Shown piece after piece: positions 47,137 to 59,419 of a stretch of DNA of 64,000 nt (positions within the stretch are counted from its first letter, which is position 1; each line of letters starts with the position of its first letter). Position numbers and translations under genes: made by a program. This stretch comes from Oscillospiraceae bacterium (lineage in GTDB: Bacteria; Bacillota; Clostridia; Oscillospirales; Oscillospiraceae): NCBI GenBank assembly GCA_009781695.1, contig WQVH01000001.1, positions 1 to 64,000 of the forward strand. Direction: 5' to 3'. The notes under the pieces were generated by a model. It made no database searches. It had not been told where the DNA came from and saw nothing but the letters and a program-made list of their open reading frames with translations.

Positions 47137-47230
47137 AAAAAACTTAAAAAGTCAAAGACTAAACCATCTTGCGAAAACAAATCCTCTATTGTACAATCGA
47201 GATAAATCTCAAAAGTTGAATGGAGGACGT

Positions 47231-49816
47231 ATGATGAACGGTTTTACCGAAATCAAATCCAATAACCCACGCTTGATCGCACAATATCTTCCACGTCCTC
47301 GACTGGAAAAAATATTCAATCAAGCAACGCACTGCAAACTGGTCTATGTGATTGCAGGTGCAGGATATGGAAAAACTCAAGCTGTGCGCCAATATATTGA
47401 CACACAGCAAGACGCTGTGACACGTTGGATACAGCTCACTGAAAGTGACAACATCGGCTTTCGTTATTGGGAAAATCTTTCACACACAGTCTCCATGGAT
47501 AATCCGGAGATGGCTGTCAAATTGCGTGAACTCGGATTTCCGGAAACGCCATCTCGATTTAAGCAGTTTGCGGAAATTCTCAGAAGTGCAGAGCATCGCT
47601 CAAACAAAACATTTCTGGTGCTTGATGATTTTCATTTAATACACGCCAGAGAAACATTGGACTTTGCGGAGCGTTGCGCCCACTTGCAAATACCCGGAGC
47701 ATGTGTGATCATTCTCTCCAGAAAAGAACCTGACTTTAATGTCGTGTCCTTGCTTTCAAAAGGCAGTGTCAGCATGGTCACGCAAGAGGATCTCTGCTTC
47801 ACCGCAGAAGAAGCAGATGCGCTTTTCAGACTGAACCAAATACCGCTCTGCGCACAGTCACTTGCACAGGTTATGGAGTCCACGAAAGGGTGGACACTGG
47901 CCATCAACATGCTTTCTGTCATGCTCAAAAAAGTGCCCACCAATTTTAAATATGCACTCAATACCGTAAGGCAAAACATTTCTAAATTGCTCGAAACCGA
48001 AGCGTGGTTTGATTTTCCGGAACATGTTCAAAAGGCAATGGTTCGGTTGTCGCTGTTGTCGGACTTACCGGTGATCCCTACGCAAAACTTTTTCGAAAAT
48101 ACAGAGTTTTTGAAGACCACCCCCGGACTTACGTCATTTATATGGTTTAACAGTTTTACAAATGACTTTAAAATCCATCCGCTCTATCTTGAGTTTTTGC
48201 AAAGTAAACGTCACATTTTGTCTGATAGCGAAAAACATGAGACTTATCTAAGCGCAGCCCAATGGTGCTTTGAAAATGACTTTTATATGAATGCCATGTA
48301 TTACCATGCAAAGTCAAATAAGTTTGAGCGCATGATAGAAACATTTCTCTCTTATCCATTTAAGCTGCCTCGCGATGTCAGTGAATATTTTTTGAAGATT
48401 CTAATAGATCTGGAACTCGGAAAAGACGAGCAAAGTAATGCTTATGTGCTCGTTTTAAAGAACTGCTTCATACCGCTTATGTTGGTCGGAGCGGAGCGAT
48501 ACGAAGAGGCACGCCAGCTATCTTTAGAGGTCATTAAAGAGTGGGAGCATGTCGATACCCCGCTGTCTATTTTACTGCTTTGCACCACTTACAGCAATCT
48601 AGCCTATATCGACATGTACAATTGCACTATCTCGCATGAGTACAACAGTCTGGAATATTTGAAAAAATCGGTAACATACTTTAAGCGCTCGGCAATTCCA
48701 CCGGCGGAGACCACCAAATCTTTTATCAATGCCGATGTACGTTCTTTTGCTTGTTTAATTGGCGCAGGCGCAAGTCTTATAGAATTTGACCAATTCTTTG
48801 AAGCCACAAAACAAACTGAGGCACTGATTGAAGAGACCCCTTATGGCATATACTCCGGTTATTCAGATCTGGTGGCCTGTGAATATGCCTTTTTCAAGAA
48901 TCAACACGCACTTGCACGAAACTACGCCCACAGTGCCATTTTAAGCGCACGTGAAAATCAGCAGTACAGTATTGAGGCGCTGGCAGGAAAGTATCTGCTC
49001 CGTATTGCGATGGCTGAGGGGAATTCCTCTCTGGTAAAGGTCATCTTAAAGCAGTTGCGCGCACATTTGAATAATCCGAATTTTTGGAATCGTCAGCTGT
49101 ATTATGATCTATATATTGGCGGATTTTATGCCCAAATCGGGCTGCCGGAAATGATCCCCCGGTGGCTGATCATTGAAGAAAAAGAGACGCCCTCTGATAT
49201 CCATGTCACCTCAAGAGAACTGATTGCAAGTGTTTTGTACTATATTGCTTCGAAAAAGTATCAGCATGCACTAACCCTTTTATGCACCTATTATCCAAGG
49301 CCGGTTCATGAGCGCTTCTTATTCGGCGAACTCCGGCTTTTGCTGCTGACTGCTGTAGCACGAATTAAAACCGGCGACACCGCAGGTGCTCTTGCAGATT
49401 TTGAAAAAGCCTATGCGTTATCTTTTGATGGCGTGTTTGAAATGTTTTTCATAGAACAAGGCAAATTGCTGCATCCACTGGTTGAGGCGGCGCTGCACCA
49501 TGAACATTGTGCGATCCCTGAGGAGTGGCTTAAGCTTATTGATCGCAAGGCCTCTGTTTATGCCAAGAAGCTTGCTGTGGTTTCCGGCGTGATCAAGAGT
49601 GAACTGAATGTCGGCGAGTCCATTTCGTTATCTCATAGAGAGCAAGAGGTCTTAAGCGATTTGTATCACGGACTTTCTCGGGATGAGATCGCTGCGCACA
49701 GGTATCTGTCTATTAATACCGTGAAGAAAATATTACAATCAATATATATCAAGTTAGATGCCCAAAATAATATTGATGCTGTTCGAATTGCACTGGAAAA
49801 AAAGCTCATTGAGTAA
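47231..49816 (+). CDS. LuxR-family MalT-like (STAND) transcriptional regulator
   Basis: N-term ATPase GAGYGKTQAVRQYI, central TPR-like region, C-term LuxR HTH LSHREQEVLSDLYHGLSRDEIAAHRYLSINTVKKILQSIYIKLDAQNNIDAVRIA. ATG at 47231 with GGAGG RBS. Confidence 0.93.
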   Translation: MMNGFTEIKSNNPRLIAQYLPRPRLEKIFNQATHCKLVYVIAGAGYGKTQAVRQYIDTQQDAVTRWIQLTESDNIGFRYWENLSHTVSMDNPEMAVKLRELGFPETPSRFKQFAEILRSAEHRSNKTFLVLDDFHLIHARETLDFAERCAHLQIPGACVIILSRKEPDFNVVSLLSKGSVSMVTQEDLCFTAEEADALFRLNQIPLCAQSLAQVMESTKGWTLAINMLSVMLKKVPTNFKYALNTVRQNISKLLETEAWFDFPEHVQKAMVRLSLLSDLPVIPTQNFFENTEFLKTTPGLTSFIWFNSFTNDFKIHPLYLEFLQSKRHILSDSEKHETYLSAAQWCFENDFYMNAMYYHAKSNKFERMIETFLSYPFKLPRDVSEYFLKILIDLELGKDEQSNAYVLVLKNCFIPLMLVGAERYEEARQLSLEVIKEWEHVDTPLSILLLCTTYSNLAYIDMYNCTISHEYNSLEYLKKSVTYFKRSAIPPAETTKSFINADVRSFACLIGAGASLIEFDQFFEATKQTEALIEETPYGIYSGYSDLVACEYAFFKNQHALARNYAHSAILSARENQQYSIEALAGKYLLRIAMAEGNSSLVKVILKQLRAHLNNPNFWNRQLYYDLYIGGFYAQIGLPEMIPRWLIIEEKETPSDIHVTSRELIASVLYYIASKKYQHALTLLCTYYPRPVHERFLFGELRLLLLTAVARIKTGDTAGALADFEKAYALSFDGVFEMFFIEQGKLLHPLVEAALHHEHCAIPEEWLKLIDRKASVYAKKLAVVSGVIKSELNVGESISLSHREQEVLSDLYHGLSRDEIAAHRYLSINTVKKILQSIYIKLDAQNNIDAVRIALEKKLIE

Positions 49817-50032: not shown

Positions 50033-50227
50033 ATGAAAGTCAATGCGAAAACAAAACAAATTGCAGTAAGGTTCGATAGCCATTCTTATGAAAAAATAAC
50101 TCATTATGCGCAACAAGAGCACAGAGGGCTAGGAGAGTTTGTCAGACACTCAACATTATTTTATATTGAGCATTTTGACACCAAAAATGACGATATAAAT
50201 CAGCCGGGAGGTAGGCGCTTATTATGA
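50033..50227 (+). CDS. Small ribbon-helix-helix-like protein
   Basis: 64 aa: KQIAVRFDSHSYEKITHYAQQEHRGLGEFVRHSTLFYIEHF, resembling RHH regulators; ATGA overlap with the adhesin gene start. Confidence 0.5.
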   Translation: MKVNAKTKQIAVRFDSHSYEKITHYAQQEHRGLGEFVRHSTLFYIEHFDTKNDDINQPGGRRLL

Positions 50228-53200
50228 ATCGCTTAATATCTATTTTGCTCAGCATATGCATCTTGGCTACTGTTCTTTTGTCGTCATTGGTGCTTGCAGA
50301 TGCTGAACATACCGAATCTCCGGACAGTGCGGATGTCTTTATGATCATCGATGATGATTATTTTGAGCCGGATGATACAGAGGACTTTTCTGCTCCGGAA
50401 CATACAGATCAGCCGGAATCTGCAGATGAAGATGCGCACGAAATCATTATTGAAAATCCTGATGATTTTGAGTACCCCAATGATTTGGGAAGTATAGACT
50501 CCTCGGAAGATTTGCCCGAGTCGGAATATACAGATGAAGACACATATGAAATCGTCGCTGACGATCCGGATCATTTTGATGACATGGACAGCGCAGAGGA
50601 AGATGAGTCAGATGCTCTTGATGAGATGGATGATGACTCGGAAGATTTGCCTGATTTGGAACATACCGACGAGGAGGATCACGAAATCATCACCGAAAAT
50701 CCCGATGATTTTGAACAATCCGACAATCTTGGTGATATAGACGATCTCGATGAAGACGATGCGCTTGACGAAGAAGACGAGGAAGAGGAAGAAGACGACG
50801 AAGACGACGAGGATTCTGAAATTGTTGACTTTTTGTACCTACATATCATGTTGGATATTGAGCGCAACGTCACCGTTATCGCCACAGAGGCAGTCACTTA
50901 TGAAGTAGTCACTAACGATGAGACCGAAGATATCAGCATTATTTTTGATTTAGCTGATACTGAATCGGAAGTTTGTGAAGAACACATCACTTTTGACTTG
51001 CCTGAGCGCTGGGTTTACATCATAGAAATAAACGAACACAGCCTCACCGTCACGCTATTTTATAGACCCATTACATCTTTGCAACGTGCATCATTTTCTC
51101 CGCACTTTACTCCGGAAGAAATAAGTACGCTGTGGTATGCAACGCCTGACTATGTTATTGAACTGGAAGCCACCCCGGCCACCACTGTATACACGCGATT
51201 GCGCGCTGCAATTCAGGATGCGCCGGTAAACGAAGTCACTCATATAGTCATACCTTTTCACATCAACACCGGCACAATCTCATCAACCACCAATCTAATC
51301 AGAGTACCCACCGGTGCAACTGTCGTGCTCATTGGTGATTTAGAAAACGCAGGTGAGCAAGTCGTGATCAGCGACACGACCGGAACGGGTACACTTCTGC
51401 GAACCATCAGGCTGCAAGGAGACGGCAGCGAAATATGCGCCTTGGTTTTAAGAAATGTCGTACTGCAAAACGCTCCGACAAACACGGCGCAATCCACACC
51501 CGAATCCCCACCCGACCCTATTGCACTGACTGCTCAAACCGGCAATACCAGAGGCGGCGGTTTGCTTATTGAGTCAACCGGTGGCGGCGGACATCTGATC
51601 TTGTGCCGAGGCAGTGTACTGCGCAACAACACCGCAGAACACAATGGCGGCGCGGTAGAAGTACAAGGAAACAGCCGCCTGACCATGATGCCGGGTGCGC
51701 TGATCCACGAAAATCGTGCAGACAGCGCAGGTGGTGCGATACATCTTGGCGGCTCAAGAGCGCTATTTAATATGTTCGGAGGCGAGATTCGTAATTGTCT
51801 GGCCAGAGGCACGAGTTCACTCGCCGCTTCAGCTGCTTTTCGCGCTTCCGGAGGAGCTGTAAGTATTACCGGAGCCAATGCGGTTTTCAATATGCATTAT
51901 GGCTATATCCGCGAGAATACTGCCGATAACATGGGCGGCGGTGTACATGTCAGCAACACTTCCGCTGCATTTAACATGTACGATGGGCTTATTGAAAAAA
52001 ACTGGGCCAGAGGTGAAAACACTTCTGCGACGAACTCTGCAACCACACGATCCAATGGCGGTGGTGTATCTATCACCAGCGGTACATTCAATATGTACGG
52101 CGGTGCAATTGCCGAAAATCTCGCAAGTTTAGGTTCCGGTGCTACTGCGCCTACTGCCACAAATGCCTTGGTTACATCCAACGGCGGCGGTGTGTTTTTA
52201 ACCGGCAGCAATGCATCATTCCATATGTATGGTGGTGTCATTAGAAACAATGAATCCGTACGTTCGAGATCGTCTGATGCAACAGGAACGACAAACAGAA
52301 ATCTTTCGCGCGCAGGCAATGGCGGTGGTGTGTATCTATCCGGGGGATCCAAATTTAACATGCATGGCGGCTATATCCAAAATAACACTGCCACAGCAGT
52401 AGCCAACAGCACTATAGCCGCAGGTGATGCACTCCACGTATCCAATGGCGGCGGTGTATATCTCACCGGAGCAAACACAACATTTCATCTGCACTATGGG
52501 GTTATTCGCCATAACGAAGCGATAAGAACCGTTAACTCCGTACCGCCCACGACCGGTGAAGATATATTTGTTTTTGCCGGTAATGGCGGTGGTGTGGCCG
52601 TGTATGATGAGGGCATCTTCGTCATGGACGATGGCGACATTTACAATAACCTCGCAACAGCGACAGGAAACAATCCTGCAGTCAGCAACAACAATATTGT
52701 CTTTTTAGCCAATGGCGGAGGCGTCTTTCTCTCAGGAACCGGTCGTATCGCCAGCGGCGGCGGCATCATTGGCCCCAATGCTGCCAGAGTTTTTCTAAAC
52801 GGCGGCAGCATCAGAGACAATCGAGCCGTAGGCTCACCGGCCAGCGTTGTCGCAGTATCCGGTAATGGCGGCGGAGTCTATGCGGCCAATCGTACCCAAT
52901 TTCACATGACGGGCGGGGTCATTAGTGGAAATGTCGCTACAGACGCCAATGTCAACGCCCCAAACTCTGCAAATGCTTTCAGAAGAGGCAACGGTTCCGG
53001 AATACATGTACGCGGCCGCACTACAGAACTCAGCTTCACCATGACCGGCGGAGAAGTACGCAATCATACCATGGTGACAGGCAATGGCGTCGGTATATTT
53101 CTTTCTAATGGATTGGTAGAGATCGGCGGAACTGCACTCATCGAAGACAACCATAGCCCCGGACACGGAGGCGGAATATATGTTGAGGGCACAACGACCT

Positions 53201-54432
53201 TGCGCATTAACGGCGGAAGTATAAATAATAATACCGCAAGGCTAGACGGCGGCGGCATGTATGTGGCGAATACAACTGTCATTTTAAACATGCAAAGCGG
53301 ATCTATCACCAATAACATCGCCAATGATGGCGGCGGTTTGTTTGTCCCACACGCTGATCAAAGCGCCAACTTAAACAATGTCACGATCAATACGGCAGCT
53401 GTATTTTCCGAAAATACTGCACGCAATGGTGTCAGGATCAATACACCTTTGGCACAGAGTGTCCGTTCAAGAATAAATCCGAACACTGTAAGTATCGCTT
53501 GGTTCGAAGCTGTAGATGCAACTTCCGGAAACTTCACGCAGAGCGCTGCACACGCTTTCAACAACTATGACATCAACGCAACGGGAACGCCGTTATGGCG
53601 CGTGACTTACGGTGTTGGTTCAGGCGAGGGTCATGTTGCGGCCACAGTCGGCAACAATATGCTTCCGCTCCCTAGCGGCGCTTTCGTCCCAAGCAACACA
53701 ACCGTTACATTTGATGCTGATACAGAGACGGATGATGCATTTGACCTGTGGAACATAGGTGTACGAGACCGTGAAGTCGATGCAGAGAATAACGAGATAG
53801 CATTTAACTTCCAAAACAACACAACAGGCACCCCATTATCATGGTCTATATCCTCAAACACTCATGTCCTAGGCAACTTTCTTCAATCACTGAAACTGAC
53901 TACACTTTCTGTCTCAAAAGATGTAGTAGGCGCTCTGGGCAACAGGGACATGGACTTTGGTTTCACTGCACTCTTTAGAGATTCAGATGGCATCGCATTA
54001 CCCGCAGGCACACAGTTTGATTATATCATCACCGAATCCGGAACATCTGTATCGTCTGGCACGCTCACTTTAACCATCGGTGGAAGCGCCGCATTTAGAT
54101 TAAGACATAATCAGACTATTTTGATCAACAATGCACCTTTGGATGGTTACATACAAATCATCGAAGAACCGGACGCTAATTACACAGTGTTCTTTACAGA
54201 CAGTGCATATGCGGGAGAGCCAACCAAAAGTAATGACACCACTTCGGTGCATATGACTGCAGAGCGCACATTTCGCTTCATCAATGTAAGGGTCGAAATT
54301 GTACCCACCGGTGTAAGTGCAGGCTATATCGGTACACCAATTTTGCTCTTCGCACTGATATCTCTGGGTGGTTTGATTACGCTTGTCCCCCGCATGGTTT
54401 CTCGTCACCGAAAGAAACGGATCCAGTTTTAA
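50224..54432 (+). CDS. Giant sortase-anchored beta-helix surface adhesin (acidic stalk, Pmp-like repeats, isopeptide domain, VPTG sorting signal)
   Basis: Signal peptide; Asp/Glu-rich repeats; more than ten GGGVxL..FxMxGGxIxxN rungs; C-terminal domain VSKDVVG...QIIEEPDANY...FRFINVR (K/E/N isopeptide pattern); VPTG at 54301-54312 then TM and RHRKKR. Confidence 0.88.
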   Translation: MNRLISILLSICILATVLLSSLVLADAEHTESPDSADVFMIIDDDYFEPDDTEDFSAPEHTDQPESADEDAHEIIIENPDDFEYPNDLGSIDSSEDLPESEYTDEDTYEIVADDPDHFDDMDSAEEDESDALDEMDDDSEDLPDLEHTDEEDHEIITENPDDFEQSDNLGDIDDLDEDDALDEEDEEEEEDDEDDEDSEIVDFLYLHIMLDIERNVTVIATEAVTYEVVTNDETEDISIIFDLADTESEVCEEHITFDLPERWVYIIEINEHSLTVTLFYRPITSLQRASFSPHFTPEEISTLWYATPDYVIELEATPATTVYTRLRAAIQDAPVNEVTHIVIPFHINTGTISSTTNLIRVPTGATVVLIGDLENAGEQVVISDTTGTGTLLRTIRLQGDGSEICALVLRNVVLQNAPTNTAQSTPESPPDPIALTAQTGNTRGGGLLIESTGGGGHLILCRGSVLRNNTAEHNGGAVEVQGNSRLTMMPGALIHENRADSAGGAIHLGGSRALFNMFGGEIRNCLARGTSSLAASAAFRASGGAVSITGANAVFNMHYGYIRENTADNMGGGVHVSNTSAAFNMYDGLIEKNWARGENTSATNSATTRSNGGGVSITSGTFNMYGGAIAENLASLGSGATAPTATNALVTSNGGGVFLTGSNASFHMYGGVIRNNESVRSRSSDATGTTNRNLSRAGNGGGVYLSGGSKFNMHGGYIQNNTATAVANSTIAAGDALHVSNGGGVYLTGANTTFHLHYGVIRHNEAIRTVNSVPPTTGEDIFVFAGNGGGVAVYDEGIFVMDDGDIYNNLATATGNNPAVSNNNIVFLANGGGVFLSGTGRIASGGGIIGPNAARVFLNGGSIRDNRAVGSPASVVAVSGNGGGVYAANRTQFHMTGGVISGNVATDANVNAPNSANAFRRGNGSGIHVRGRTTELSFTMTGGEVRNHTMVTGNGVGIFLSNGLVEIGGTALIEDNHSPGHGGGIYVEGTTTLRINGGSINNNTARLDGGGMYVANTTVILNMQSGSITNNIANDGGGLFVPHADQSANLNNVTINTAAVFSENTARNGVRINTPLAQSVRSRINPNTVSIAWFEAVDATSGNFTQSAAHAFNNYDINATGTPLWRVTYGVGSGEGHVAATVGNNMLPLPSGAFVPSNTTVTFDADTETDDAFDLWNIGVRDREVDAENNEIAFNFQNNTTGTPLSWSISSNTHVLGNFLQSLKLTTLSVSKDVVGALGNRDMDFGFTALFRDSDGIALPAGTQFDYIITESGTSVSSGTLTLTIGGSAAFRLRHNQTILINNAPLDGYIQIIEEPDANYTVFFTDSAYAGEPTKSNDTTSVHMTAERTFRFINVRVEIVPTGVSAGYIGTPILLFALISLGGLITLVPRMVSRHRKKRIQF
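50446..50742 (+). repeat. Degenerate acidic repeat in adhesin N-terminal stalk
   Basis: ENPDDFEYPNDLGSID and ENPDDFEQSDNLGDID copies about 250 bp apart, with DEDxxEIxxxxPDxF variants between; both DNA and protein similarity visible. Confidence 0.7.
51540..53340 (+). repeat. Beta-helix rung repeats in adhesin
   Basis: Repeated GGCGG(T/C)GT coding for GGGV followed by (F/L)xMxGGxIxxN units about every 40-60 aa. Confidence 0.85.
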
Positions 54433-54531: not shown

Positions 54532-55134
54532 ATGGACGAGAAGACTGTATTAGAGCATAATCACATCGAGCATGTACCCTTGCAAGAAGTTTCCGCACTA
54601 CCTCTGAGGGCACCTTCAAGAAAACCTGCACCGCCCCGCGCCCCATCTATCTGGAGTGAACTGGGTGCCCTAGCTGTCAAAATTCTGGTAATTACCGTTA
54701 TCCTTACGTTAATCTTCACATTTTTCTACGGATTTCATAGGACAACAGATCCGGATATGACGCCCATGGTCAAAACAGGTGACCTAGTGCTTTTTTACCG
54801 GCTGGGTAGAGACTATGTCATCGGAGACCTTCTGCTGCTCGACTTCCAGGGAGAGCGCCAAATACGCAGGGTGGTCGCCAGAGCCGGAGACACTGTAGAT
54901 ATTACAGAAAGCGGTCTGGTTGTCAATGGGTCGCTGCAACAAGAACTCGACATATTTCAGCAAACATGGAGATATGAAAACAGTTTTGATTTTCCACTCA
55001 CGGTTGGTCAGGGACAAGTATTCGTCTTGGGCGATGCGAGGGAAGGCGCAACAGACAGCCGTGTGTACGGTTCTGTAAATACAGAAGACACATTAGGCAC
55101 AGTAATCACAATTATTAGACGCAGAAATTTATAA
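54532..55134 (+). CDS. SipA-like signal-peptidase-fold protein (catalytic residues substituted)
   Basis: S26 fold signatures DPDMTPMVKTGDLVLFYR, IRRVVARAGDTV, GQVFVLGDAREGATDSRVYG; the usual Ser is Asp and the usual Lys is Arg; located between adhesin and pilin genes. Confidence 0.85.
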   Translation: MDEKTVLEHNHIEHVPLQEVSALPLRAPSRKPAPPRAPSIWSELGALAVKILVITVILTLIFTFFYGFHRTTDPDMTPMVKTGDLVLFYRLGRDYVIGDLLLLDFQGERQIRRVVARAGDTVDITESGLVVNGSLQQELDIFQQTWRYENSFDFPLTVGQGQVFVLGDAREGATDSRVYGSVNTEDTLGTVITIIRRRNL

Positions 55135-55255: not shown

Positions 55256-56644
55256 ATGTTCAAAAAGTCAAAATCCCTATTAGTCATTACACTCGCACTT
55301 CTGATATGTTTAGGAAGTGTACTCCCGGCACTGGCAAGCGAACTCAATCAAAGCGGCGCCTTAGTCGGAACCGAGAGCAATCCCGTTGAGGCAACCATCA
55401 CCAAACAACTCAGAATGCCTGTAGAAACAACCACTCCAAATGTAGTTTTCAATTTCTTAGCTACCAAAATCAGTGTAGACGGCGAGACAAGCGCTGAAGA
55501 TCTGGCGCGTATGCCGGAACTTGCTAACCTGATCGCCAGCTTTAGCACAAGCGACACAACACCTACTTTCACTGTCAACAATGTCATGTCGTTCATGAAG
55601 GAGACCGGCAACATTTTTGATGATGTCACCTTCCCACACGCCGGTATTTTTGTATACCAAATCACAGAAGTGCATCCTGAAGATGCCGAAGAAGATGATG
55701 AAGATAACGAAGAGGCTACCGGTGGAATACCGCACGAAACCATGAGATATTCAACCGCTGTATATACACTCACCGTTTATGTCTCAAACACCGCCGACGG
55801 CAAGGGCACATATGTCAGTGGTCTGGGCACGGTCGTCTCCTCAACTGACCTTGATACACAAGCCGAAGGCAGCAAAGTTGACCCCACTCCGGGCGGCAAT
55901 GGCGAAGAATACTTTTTCAGCCAAATGATCTTTACCAATGACTTTGTAAGAACCAATGGTGCCGATGACCCTAGAAATCCGGATCCTGTTAACGAGTCTA
56001 CCCTGTCTATAAGCAAAGAAGTTGAGGGTGAACTGGCCAGCAGAGAACAATATTTCCAGTTTGACATCACACTCAATATTCCCTTTATCGTAACGAATGT
56101 GCCCACCTATTACAGAGCATATGTTGTTCAAGGTGGCGCCGTCATAGATCCCTCCAACAATGTATACCGTGCCGCCGATTCCGGTAATGATGAGGATGAG
56201 GACGAGGACGAGACTGCGGGTGCAGATATCTCCGCTCTGATCGGCACAGATGCCGGTGGCACTTACATCAAAATTGCCTCTAATGCAACGACTACTTTTT
56301 TCCTGAAAGACGGACAACGTCTGGTATTTGTTGACACACCGGTCGGCACAAGTTATGACGTGACAGAATCAGCAGCAACCCACTATGTTCCCAGATTTTC
56401 GATCACAACAGACGGCACCAAAGCCGCAGAAGTTCCGGGAAGTTTGAACACAGCACTTGCTACCACAGAGCAATTTGTAGGTGAGCGCGCAAACAGCGCT
56501 GATTTCACAAACTTCCGTGACTTTATCGCACCCACCGGACTGAGCTTAAATGATCTACCTTTTATCGGATTGATTGCGCTGGCACTCGGCACTTTGATCA
56601 TTTTCATTCTGGCCAAAACCCGTAGAAGACATTACGACCGCTAA
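55256..56644 (+). CDS. FctA/Spy0128-like major pilin candidate, APTG sorting signal
   Basis: Signal peptide; N domain ATITKQL...FVYQITEV...MIFTNDF and C domain LSISKEVEG...YDVTESAATHY...ADFTNFRD (two K/E/N isopeptide sets); APTG at 56528-56539, TM, KTRRRHYDR. Confidence 0.88.
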   Translation: MFKKSKSLLVITLALLICLGSVLPALASELNQSGALVGTESNPVEATITKQLRMPVETTTPNVVFNFLATKISVDGETSAEDLARMPELANLIASFSTSDTTPTFTVNNVMSFMKETGNIFDDVTFPHAGIFVYQITEVHPEDAEEDDEDNEEATGGIPHETMRYSTAVYTLTVYVSNTADGKGTYVSGLGTVVSSTDLDTQAEGSKVDPTPGGNGEEYFFSQMIFTNDFVRTNGADDPRNPDPVNESTLSISKEVEGELASREQYFQFDITLNIPFIVTNVPTYYRAYVVQGGAVIDPSNNVYRAADSGNDEDEDEDETAGADISALIGTDAGGTYIKIASNATTTFFLKDGQRLVFVDTPVGTSYDVTESAATHYVPRFSITTDGTKAAEVPGSLNTALATTEQFVGERANSADFTNFRDFIAPTGLSLNDLPFIGLIALALGTLIIFILAKTRRRHYDR

Positions 56645-56761: not shown

Positions 56762-57691
56762 ATGGAAATCGCAGCTAAAATTGGTAGGAAAAGCATACGG
56801 CTTGTACACTGGTTTATCGATTTATTCATACTGATCATTATCTTTTTGCTCATTGCCTTTAGCTGTTATGCCATATGGGATTCGGGACAGGTACACAACA
56901 TAGCCAGTCATAGACAGTACGAAATGTACAAGCCTACGGTCGCAGGTGACACGACATCTTTTGAGGACTTGCAGACTATTAATCCGGATGTGTTTGCATG
57001 GCTGACAGTTTATGGAACCAACATAGACTATCCGGTAGTTCAAGGACAAGATAACAAGATATATGTCAACACCAACGCAAGAGGCAGACACGCACTTTCC
57101 GGCGCAATATTTCTGGACTTTCGCAGCGCCCCGGACTTTTCGGATTTTAACAGTATCTTATATGGACATCACATGGAAAATCGCGTCATGTTCGGGGAGA
57201 TCGCACTATTTTCCGACAGAGGTTATTTTGAAGCACGTCGATATGGGATGTTATATTTCGATGGCAAGGAGCATGGCTTAGAGTTTTTTGCTTTTGTGCA
57301 CACCGATGCTTATGACACCACAGTATTCAAAACCGCAATTACAGAACCGGATGAGCAGCAAGCATATCTTGATTTATTGTTGCAAACAGCTGTACACACA
57401 CGCAACTATGTCCCGGTAACAGTCAGTGATAGGATCGTTTTGCTCTCTACATGCTCACCAAACTCCACCAATGGGCGGGATATACTTATCGGTAGAATTA
57501 TTGCCGAGGTTCATGATGATCCTTTCTTCGTGGATACACCCGTCAGCACCCCGATAATTCCGGTAATCGATGAAATTTCCGGACTGTGGACACAGCTTGA
57601 CATGTGGGCTCGGATCAGCATCGCAGCGGTGATATCCCTGCTGATCTTGCTTCTGATTATCTCAATAATCAAAAGACGAAAAAGACGTTAA
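56762..57691 (+). CDS. Class B sortase
   Basis: AWLTVYGTNIDYPVVQGQDNKIYVN...FNSILYGHHMENRVMF...IVLLSTCSPNSTNGRDILIGRI (His/Cys/Arg). Confidence 0.95.
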   Translation: MEIAAKIGRKSIRLVHWFIDLFILIIIFLLIAFSCYAIWDSGQVHNIASHRQYEMYKPTVAGDTTSFEDLQTINPDVFAWLTVYGTNIDYPVVQGQDNKIYVNTNARGRHALSGAIFLDFRSAPDFSDFNSILYGHHMENRVMFGEIALFSDRGYFEARRYGMLYFDGKEHGLEFFAFVHTDAYDTTVFKTAITEPDEQQAYLDLLLQTAVHTRNYVPVTVSDRIVLLSTCSPNSTNGRDILIGRIIAEVHDDPFFVDTPVSTPIIPVIDEISGLWTQLDMWARISIAAVISLLILLLIISIIKRRKRR

Positions 57692-57726: not shown

Positions 57727-58632
57727 ATGTTCATTATCATGTGTAGGATCACAAGTCAAAAAAAATCCGGAGATATAAAAAGGAGGGGCGGCGGTATTTT
57801 CGCAGCCGGTCTGGCGCTGATTTGCCTCATCGGCACACTGCTCACCCCAATGGCATATGCTTCAACAAATAGCAGCCAAGTAATCACAGTAGTACAACAT
57901 TTTACCAGCGCCGGAGCATCGTCTGCGCCGGATGAGATGTTCACTTACAGTTTAAGCCCAAAAACACCCAATGCGCTCAAGGCTATTGGAAGCGATACAT
58001 ATACTTTTATGATAACCGGAGCTAACGAGATGCACTTAGATGTCTTAAACTTCACTACGGCGGGACGCTATGTCTATGAGCTGAGATGTGTGACGGAAGA
58101 CAGGTCAAACTATACAATCGATCGGCGTGTGTATACCATTGAGATATACGTCAGTGACAGTAGCCTAACAGCCACAATGGTCGTTTATACAGATGACCGT
58201 ATCAAGGCATCGGATATATCATTTGAGCATACATACACAGCCCCTCCAATCATCCCGGAAAGTGAAAACATCACACATCCTCCGGTCGTTTGGTTGCCTC
58301 CCAACTCCGGGGTTGGTGTTCCGGGCGGTAGTGTCACAACCATAAATGAAGGTGCAAATACTCCGGGTACAGAGTTCAGTGTGCCGGGTACAGAGTTTAG
58401 TGAACCAGATATTGTGATAGATATTCCGAGCCGCATCCCTGATGCACCCGCTCCTTCAATCAGCAGACCCCACACACCAACCAATGCGCCAAAGACAGGT
58501 GATTTCAGCAATCCTGAGCTTTGGACACGACTGATTGTGATTAGCGGCACATTGCTTGTTTTGGTCATTTGGGTTGGCTGGAAGTCAAGCAGATCAAGCA
58601 AGAACACAGAGGAGATGGTTACAGATGAGTAA
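57727..58632 (+). CDS. FctA-like second (ancillary/basal) pilus subunit with degenerate isopeptide residues, APKTG sorting signal
   Basis: Spy0128-like pattern ...LNFTTAGRYVYELRCV..YTIDRRVYTIEIYVSDSSLTATMVVYTDD...ISFEHTYTAP; Pro-rich region; APKTGD at 58486-58503, TM, charged tail. Confidence 0.8.
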   Translation: MFIIMCRITSQKKSGDIKRRGGGIFAAGLALICLIGTLLTPMAYASTNSSQVITVVQHFTSAGASSAPDEMFTYSLSPKTPNALKAIGSDTYTFMITGANEMHLDVLNFTTAGRYVYELRCVTEDRSNYTIDRRVYTIEIYVSDSSLTATMVVYTDDRIKASDISFEHTYTAPPIIPESENITHPPVVWLPPNSGVGVPGGSVTTINEGANTPGTEFSVPGTEFSEPDIVIDIPSRIPDAPAPSISRPHTPTNAPKTGDFSNPELWTRLIVISGTLLVLVIWVGWKSSRSSKNTEEMVTDE

Positions 58633-59419
58633 ACCGGCTAAAGCATTGTTTCTCTGCGTTATTTTTTCTTTGCTTTCCGTTATCGGCTACAGTAGCTTTC
58701 AATTATCAGCCATAAATCGTGATGTTGCCCAAGAATCGCAAGTGCGCGAATGGTCTATGCAATACCGTCCGGTGCAGAGCCTCCCGACTTCTACTTCTGC
58801 TGAGCGCCCCAATGCAGTCAGTACCTCCCAAGCAGTCAGCATATCCCAAGAGGTGAATCAGAGTATCGTCGATTTGCAAGCGGCAGTGTCCGATGTGGTT
58901 GGGTGGCTCACTGTTCCAAATACCATGATTGATTACCCATTTTTGCAGGGTGCGGATAACTATCAGTATCTGCATTTAGATTTAAACCACGGTCGGTCAG
59001 CGGCGGGCAGTGTTTTCATGGATGTACGTAATCATATAGATTTTTCTGACTTTCATTCGATCCTTTATGGTCACAATATGAGAAGTGGCAGCATGTTTGG
59101 TTCTTTGCAGCGTTTTAACGATCAGGCTTTTTTCGATCTGAACAAAACCGGGCATATTTTCCTTGCCCATAGGACTTATGAGATTGAATTTATGGCCTTT
59201 GCTGTCGTAGCGCCCGATGATGCAATGATGTACAACCCTATGATTGTAGATGAGACAGACAAGCTTGCATTTTTAGACTATGTGGCAAGCACTGCGCGAT
59301 ATTATAGGGATATCGGAATCACAGTACATGATCGCATGGTGACATTGTCCACTTGTAATTACGAGTTTGACGATGCGCGTATGGTGCTGATTGGCAGACT
59401 GCGCAATCCGCAACAATAA
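58625..59419 (+). CDS. Class B sortase (second)
   Basis: GWLTVPNTMIDYPFLQGADNYQYLHLDLN...FHSILYGHNMRSGSMFGSL...MVTLSTCNYEFDDARMVLIGRL; ATG at 58625 overlaps the preceding stop. Confidence 0.95.
   Translation: MSKPAKALFLCVIFSLLSVIGYSSFQLSAINRDVAQESQVREWSMQYRPVQSLPTSTSAERPNAVSTSQAVSISQEVNQSIVDLQAAVSDVVGWLTVPNTMIDYPFLQGADNYQYLHLDLNHGRSAAGSVFMDVRNHIDFSDFHSILYGHNMRSGSMFGSLQRFNDQAFFDLNKTGHIFLAHRTYEIEFMAFAVVAPDDAMMYNPMIVDETDKLAFLDYVASTARYYRDIGITVHDRMVTLSTCNYEFDDARMVLIGRLRNPQQ

What the first reader, a model, noticed from the sequence alone, without database searches (positions are those of the whole stretch)
57895..58230. Second FctA-like subunit appears to have lost all three isopeptide-forming residues (K/E/N to Q/C/H)
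Aligning by eye to FctA-type domains and the neighbouring pilin (ITKQL...YQITEV...IFTNDF), the equivalent positions read VVQHF (Gln, 57895-57897), VYELRCV (Cys, 58087-58089) and SFEHTY (His, 58228-58230). The fold pattern is otherwise retained. This suggests a subunit that cannot form the usual Lys-Asn cross-link, or uses other chemistry, for example a Cys-dependent one.
Basis: partly seen in the sequence, partly recalled or inferred. Interest (0 to 1): 0.7.

Follow-up and report, generated by a model that had tools for sequence, protein, structure and literature searches.

The report
FctB-type basal pilin lacking isopeptide bond
The protein really does lack the three residues that cross-link most pilus subunits of this fold, but it is the wall-anchoring (basal) subunit of a streptococcal-type pilus operon, a class of subunit whose best-studied member (FctB) is already known to lack that cross-link.

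Summary
In P0001 (window 57727-58632, +), Q57, C121 and H168 occupy the Lys, Glu and Asn positions of an FctA-type domain, and no other Lys lies in beta-1. The suggested special or Cys-dependent chemistry is not supported. P0001 is an FctB-type basal pilin: its best sequence and fold matches in the whole PDB are FctB (3KLQ, 5TTD, 8K6T); it has a Pro-bearing tail and a PKTGD sorting signal; and its operon is ordered adhesin - SipA-like - shaft pilin - class B sortase - basal pilin, the order of streptococcal cpa-sipA-fctA-srtC-fctB. FctB is published as having no isopeptide bond; its positions read N13/Q67/P117. Relatives in Oscillospiraceae and related families have Q/C/H, Q/S/H, Q/V/H, Q/N/H, Q/H/Q, Q/P/H or Q/Q/N: the 'Glu' site is variable, Cys occurs in only two species, and only the beta-1 Gln and a loop Lys (K160) are constant. 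These domains group together apart from typical K/E/N domains, so the loss is old. K160, close to the acceptor Lys position of Spy0128 and FctB, is probably where the shaft is attached. New member of a known kind.

The parts
57727..58632 (+). P0001, FctB-type basal pilin: signal peptide, one FctA/CnaB-type domain (about residues 47-172), Pro-bearing tail, APKTGD sorting motif, TM, basic tail. The start is probably ATG 57739 (M5), where the orthologues begin.
57895..57897 (+). Gln57 at the position of the isopeptide Lys (Spy0128 K36, FctB N13)
58087..58089 (+). Cys121 at the position of the catalytic Glu (Spy0128 E117, FctB Q67)
58228..58230 (+). His168 at the position of the isopeptide Asn (Spy0128 N168, FctB P117)
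58204..58206 (+). Lys160, invariant in 10 relatives, in the loop before the last strand; inferred acceptor of the shaft subunit
   Evidence: inference
58486..58503 (+). APKTGD sorting motif (residues 254-259)
   Evidence: sequence
50224..54432 (+). P0003, tip adhesin candidate: POMP-like repeats, C-terminal DUF7601 domain, VPTG-type motif
54532..55134 (+). SipA/LepA-like signal-peptidase homologue; catalytic Ser and Lys positions read Asp and Arg
55256..56644 (+). P0002, shaft pilin (PitB/FctA-like), K/E/N residues present, APTG motif
56762..57691 (+). class B sortase 1 (LSTC, GHHM, Arg in LIGRI)
58625..59419 (+). class B sortase 2 (LSTC, GHNM, Arg in LIGRL); ATG 58625 overlaps the stop of P0001
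47189..49816 (+). MalT/LuxR-type regulator, conserved upstream of the operon in L061, L062 and L114

Best explanation
P0001 is the basal (wall-anchor) pilin of an FCT/PI-2-type pilus operon. The first class B sortase joins the C-terminal Thr of the shaft pilin (APTG motif) to a Lys of P0001, most likely K160. P0001's own PKTGD signal is then used to fix the pilus to the wall. Its Ig-like domain folds without the internal Lys-Asn bond, as FctB does; the inner residues are simply Q/C/H in place of K/E/N. Shown: absence of the triad, predicted fold, operon order, conservation of Gln57 and K160. Inferred: K160 as acceptor, which sortase anchors, and absence of any other covalent bond.
For: PDB sequence search: best hits FctB3 8k6t (8.6e-6) and FctB 3klq (3.9e-4) (profile search). 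Foldseek: the four best of 350,542 chains are FctB (E 1.6e-8 to 3.8e-8), ahead of Spy0128. [quoted passage not shown] SipA-like gene hits SipA 4n31 at 5.2e-19; shaft hits PitB 4s3l at 4.9e-16. FctB has no isopeptide bond, N13/Q67/P117 (PMC7900414; PMC5311914). Gln57 and K160 are invariant in 10 relatives. Q-type domains group together on the domain tree, next to FctB and V/I-Q-N domains.
Against: K160 is one residue further from the core Phe than the Spy0128/FctB acceptor Lys (F-6 against F-5; the latter spacing is read from the alignments plus memory of the numbering). The window's tail is less proline-rich than FctB's, though L061 and L062 have clear polyproline tails. The placement of FctB in the tree is weakly supported (95/68) and rests on a partial sequence. 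No experiment.
Confidence: 0.9

Rival explanations
1. Q57, C121 and H168 form another internal bond, a Cys-Gln thioester or a His-assisted Ser/Cys-Gln ester, in place of the isopeptide.
For: Gln is invariant; in the two orthologues the middle site is Cys or Ser and the third His; all three map to the inner core positions. Thioester (Cys-Gln) and ester (Thr-Gln) bonds exist in other surface proteins (established knowledge).
Against: The middle site is Val, Asn, His, Pro or Gln in relatives with the same operon, and Gln with a Val or Pro partner cannot make such a bond. FctB, the nearest solved structure, has none.
Confidence: 0.02
2. The gene is a decaying copy of the shaft pilin that recently lost its cross-link.
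For: It lies next to an intact K/E/N pilin.
Against: Open frame, intact signal peptide and sorting signal; orthologues at 41-46% identity in the same operon position with the same Gln; Q-type domains group together apart from typical K/E/N domains.
Confidence: 0.02
3. P0001 is an accessory or second adhesive subunit rather than the basal one.
For: Recombinant FctB and SpaB can bind host material (PMC7900414, PMC8244301); several relatives carry extra domains.
Against: Operon position, single domain, tail, and a PKTGD signal distinct from the PTG motifs of adhesin and shaft fit the basal role.
Confidence: 0.06

Closest known systems
FctB, basal pilin of Streptococcus pyogenes (PDB 3KLQ, 8K6T)
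   Same: Single CnaB-type domain related to the N-domain of Spy0128, no isopeptide triad, Pro-containing tail, LPXTG-like anchor signal, same place in the operon after a class B sortase gene.
   Different: Triad positions Q/C/H instead of N/Q/P; about 20% identity; followed by a second class B sortase; all five sortase hits in this genome are class-B-like, whereas FctB is anchored by SrtA.
Spy0128 (FctA) and PitB shaft pilins
   Same: Same fold and PF12892 family; P0002 next door is of this type.
   Different: They have the K/E/N triad in the N-domain, a second domain, and polymerise.
Pneumococcal pilus islet 2
   Same: Shaft pilin PitB-like, SipA, two class B sortases (islet layout from memory: pitA-sipA-pitB-srtG1-srtG2).
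   Different: From memory PI-2 has no FctB gene between the sortases; not tested here.

Membership tests
FctA / Spy0128-like domain (PF12892) | Profile score above the gathering cut-off | tested here: met
   30.1 against 22.1 bits
FctA / Spy0128-like domain (PF12892) | Lys-Glu-Asn triad for an internal isopeptide bond | tested here: not met
   Q57/C121/H168; no Lys in beta-1
FctB-type basal pilin | Single Ig-like domain with FctB as closest solved structure | tested here: met
FctB-type basal pilin | No intramolecular isopeptide triad | tested here: met
   FctB reference PMC5311914
FctB-type basal pilin | Proline-rich tail and LPXTG-like anchor signal | tested here: met
   APKTGD + TM; tail Pro-containing in the window, strongly Pro-rich in L061 and L062
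FctB-type basal pilin | Operon order cpa-sipA-fctA-srtC(class B)-fctB | tested here: met
   PMC4049620
FctB-type basal pilin | Acceptor Lys in the omega loop, linked to the shaft | tested here: inconclusive
   K160 invariant and in the corresponding loop but offset by one residue; the linkage itself is not testable here
Thioester or ester-bond domain | Conserved bond-forming pair (Cys-Gln or Thr-Gln) | tested here: not met
   Cys site variable: C, S, V, N, H, P, Q

The most novel reading that the evidence does not exclude
In the window protein and its Q/C/H and Q/S/H orthologues, the inner Gln, Cys/Ser and His react to form a thioester or ester cross-link that replaces the lost isopeptide, a recently evolved switch of bond chemistry inside an FctB-type domain.
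Probability: 0.02. Interest if true: 0.7.

Novelty: new member of a known kind. Interest (0 to 1): 0.22.

Why it matters
It settles why a pilin-like subunit beside a normal cross-linkable shaft pilin lacks the triad: this is a property of the basal subunit class, not an exotic chemistry. It also shows that the streptococcal FCT-type system (SipA-like pseudo-peptidase, class B sortase, FctB-like base) occurs with the same gene order in Oscillospiraceae and related families, including MAGs that appear to be from termite guts, and gives sequence-diverse basal pilins in which one inner Gln and one loop Lys stay constant.

Tried and rejected
Search for relatives on plasmids and in viral contigs: none. 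Cys-dependent chemistry: rejected because the site varies among operon-matched relatives. Recent decay: rejected by orthologue conservation and the tree. Alternative in-register triad: the domain's only lysines are K79, K85 (loop after the second strand) and K160 (loop before the last strand), none in beta-1. MAFFT on few sequences shifted C121 by one column against the two-domain relatives; the broader alignment, the locally ungapped match to FctB and the alternating Y-x-Y-x-L-x-C strand pattern put C121 at the Glu site. Papers on sortase pili in termite-gut bacteria: none relevant in the held library. A first seed alignment included loci read on the wrong strand and was discarded; only oriented seeds were used from then on.

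Full report
What was checked. P0001 (57727-58632, +) carries Q57, C121 and H168 at the three stated codons. It scores above the curated cut-offs of PF12892 and TIGR03786. A profile built from all fetched domains places the three residues in the Lys, Glu and Asn columns.

Relatives. Two orthologues with 41-46% identity occur in another genus of the same family; they are Oscillospiraceae MAGs by title (the sample names suggest termite guts, an inference from memory). Their positions read Q/C/H and Q/S/H. Further relatives read Q/Q/N (L063, L064, L065, L074), Q/V/H (L077, L078), Q/N/H (L075), Q/H/Q (L076) and Q/P/H (L011). In ten aligned domains, among the residues of interest only Gln57 and Lys160 are invariant. 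The Cys is therefore not a conserved reactive residue.

Identity. In the whole PDB the best sequence matches of P0001 are FctB3 (8k6t) and FctB (3klq) (profile search, where a two-copy T18.1 shaft pilin construct scores higher by summing two stretches). The AlphaFold model of the domain (pLDDT 84.5, pTM 0.75) has FctB as its four best structural matches, followed by Spy0128. In the alignment C121 faces the Gln that is FctB Q67 and H168 faces the Pro that is P117.

Operon. Upstream lie an adhesin candidate with a DUF7601 end (P0003), a SipA-like protein (best PDB hit SipA; the catalytic Ser and Lys positions read Asp and Arg in the alignment with the signal peptidase I entry 4nv4 of the same call), a PitB-like shaft pilin and a class B sortase. 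Downstream is a second class B sortase. [quoted passage not shown] Sorting motifs also divide as in streptococci: VPTG and APTG on adhesin and shaft, PKTGD on the basal protein (PMC7900414).

Known state of FctB. FctB has no intramolecular isopeptide bond (PMC7900414). Its positions are Asn13, Gln67 and Pro117, and a bond formed only after engineering (PMC5311914). Other basal pilin structures mostly lack the bond too (PMC8244301).

History. In a tree of 92 domains the 13 Q-type domains are separated from the sampled K/E/N domains by one well-supported branch (95/87), with FctB and a V/I-Q-N group next to them; there are few columns, so details are unsure. The N-domain of P0002 and its two orthologues (scored K/E/- because the last strand was not aligned) also falls on the Q-type side, so the order of loss and retention within that larger group is not settled.

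Mechanism. By analogy with FctB, whose key Lys is placed like that of Spy0128, on an omega loop (PMC4049620), K160 is the likely attachment point of the shaft; it lies in the loop before the last strand in the model, one residue off in spacing. Five sortase genes were found in the genome by PF04203, all at places that also match the class B model, two of them below its cut-off, so wall anchoring is probably by a class B enzyme, perhaps sortase 2. This is inference.

Verdict. A real feature, correctly read, already explained: a new FctB-type basal pilin.

Noticed in passing
54532-55134: SipA-like signal peptidase homologue with Asp and Arg at the catalytic Ser and Lys positions, as in inactive streptococcal SipA.
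   Followed up: partly
50224-54432: Tip adhesin candidate with a long acidic N-terminal stretch and POMP-like repeats; ends in DUF7601 and a VPTG motif.
   Followed up: no
whole genome G000 (window contig C1, also C4, C8, C29): All five PF04203 sortase hits coincide with class B sortase hits; no separate class A sortase was seen.
   Followed up: partly
L064:3036-12739: Related operon with a second adhesin and a second PitB-like shaft gene after the basal gene.
   Followed up: no
L063, L064, L065, L075, L076: Basal proteins with a Q-type first domain followed by a second FctA-like domain (K/E/N where scored), so one protein mixes uncross-linked and cross-linkable domains.
   Followed up: partly
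L008, L012, L020, L082, L083: A second group of small PxTGD proteins with V or I at the Lys site and Gln at the Glu site; in the tree next to FctB.
   Followed up: no
47189-49816: MalT/LuxR-type regulator conserved upstream of the pilus operon in L061, L062 and L114.
   Followed up: no
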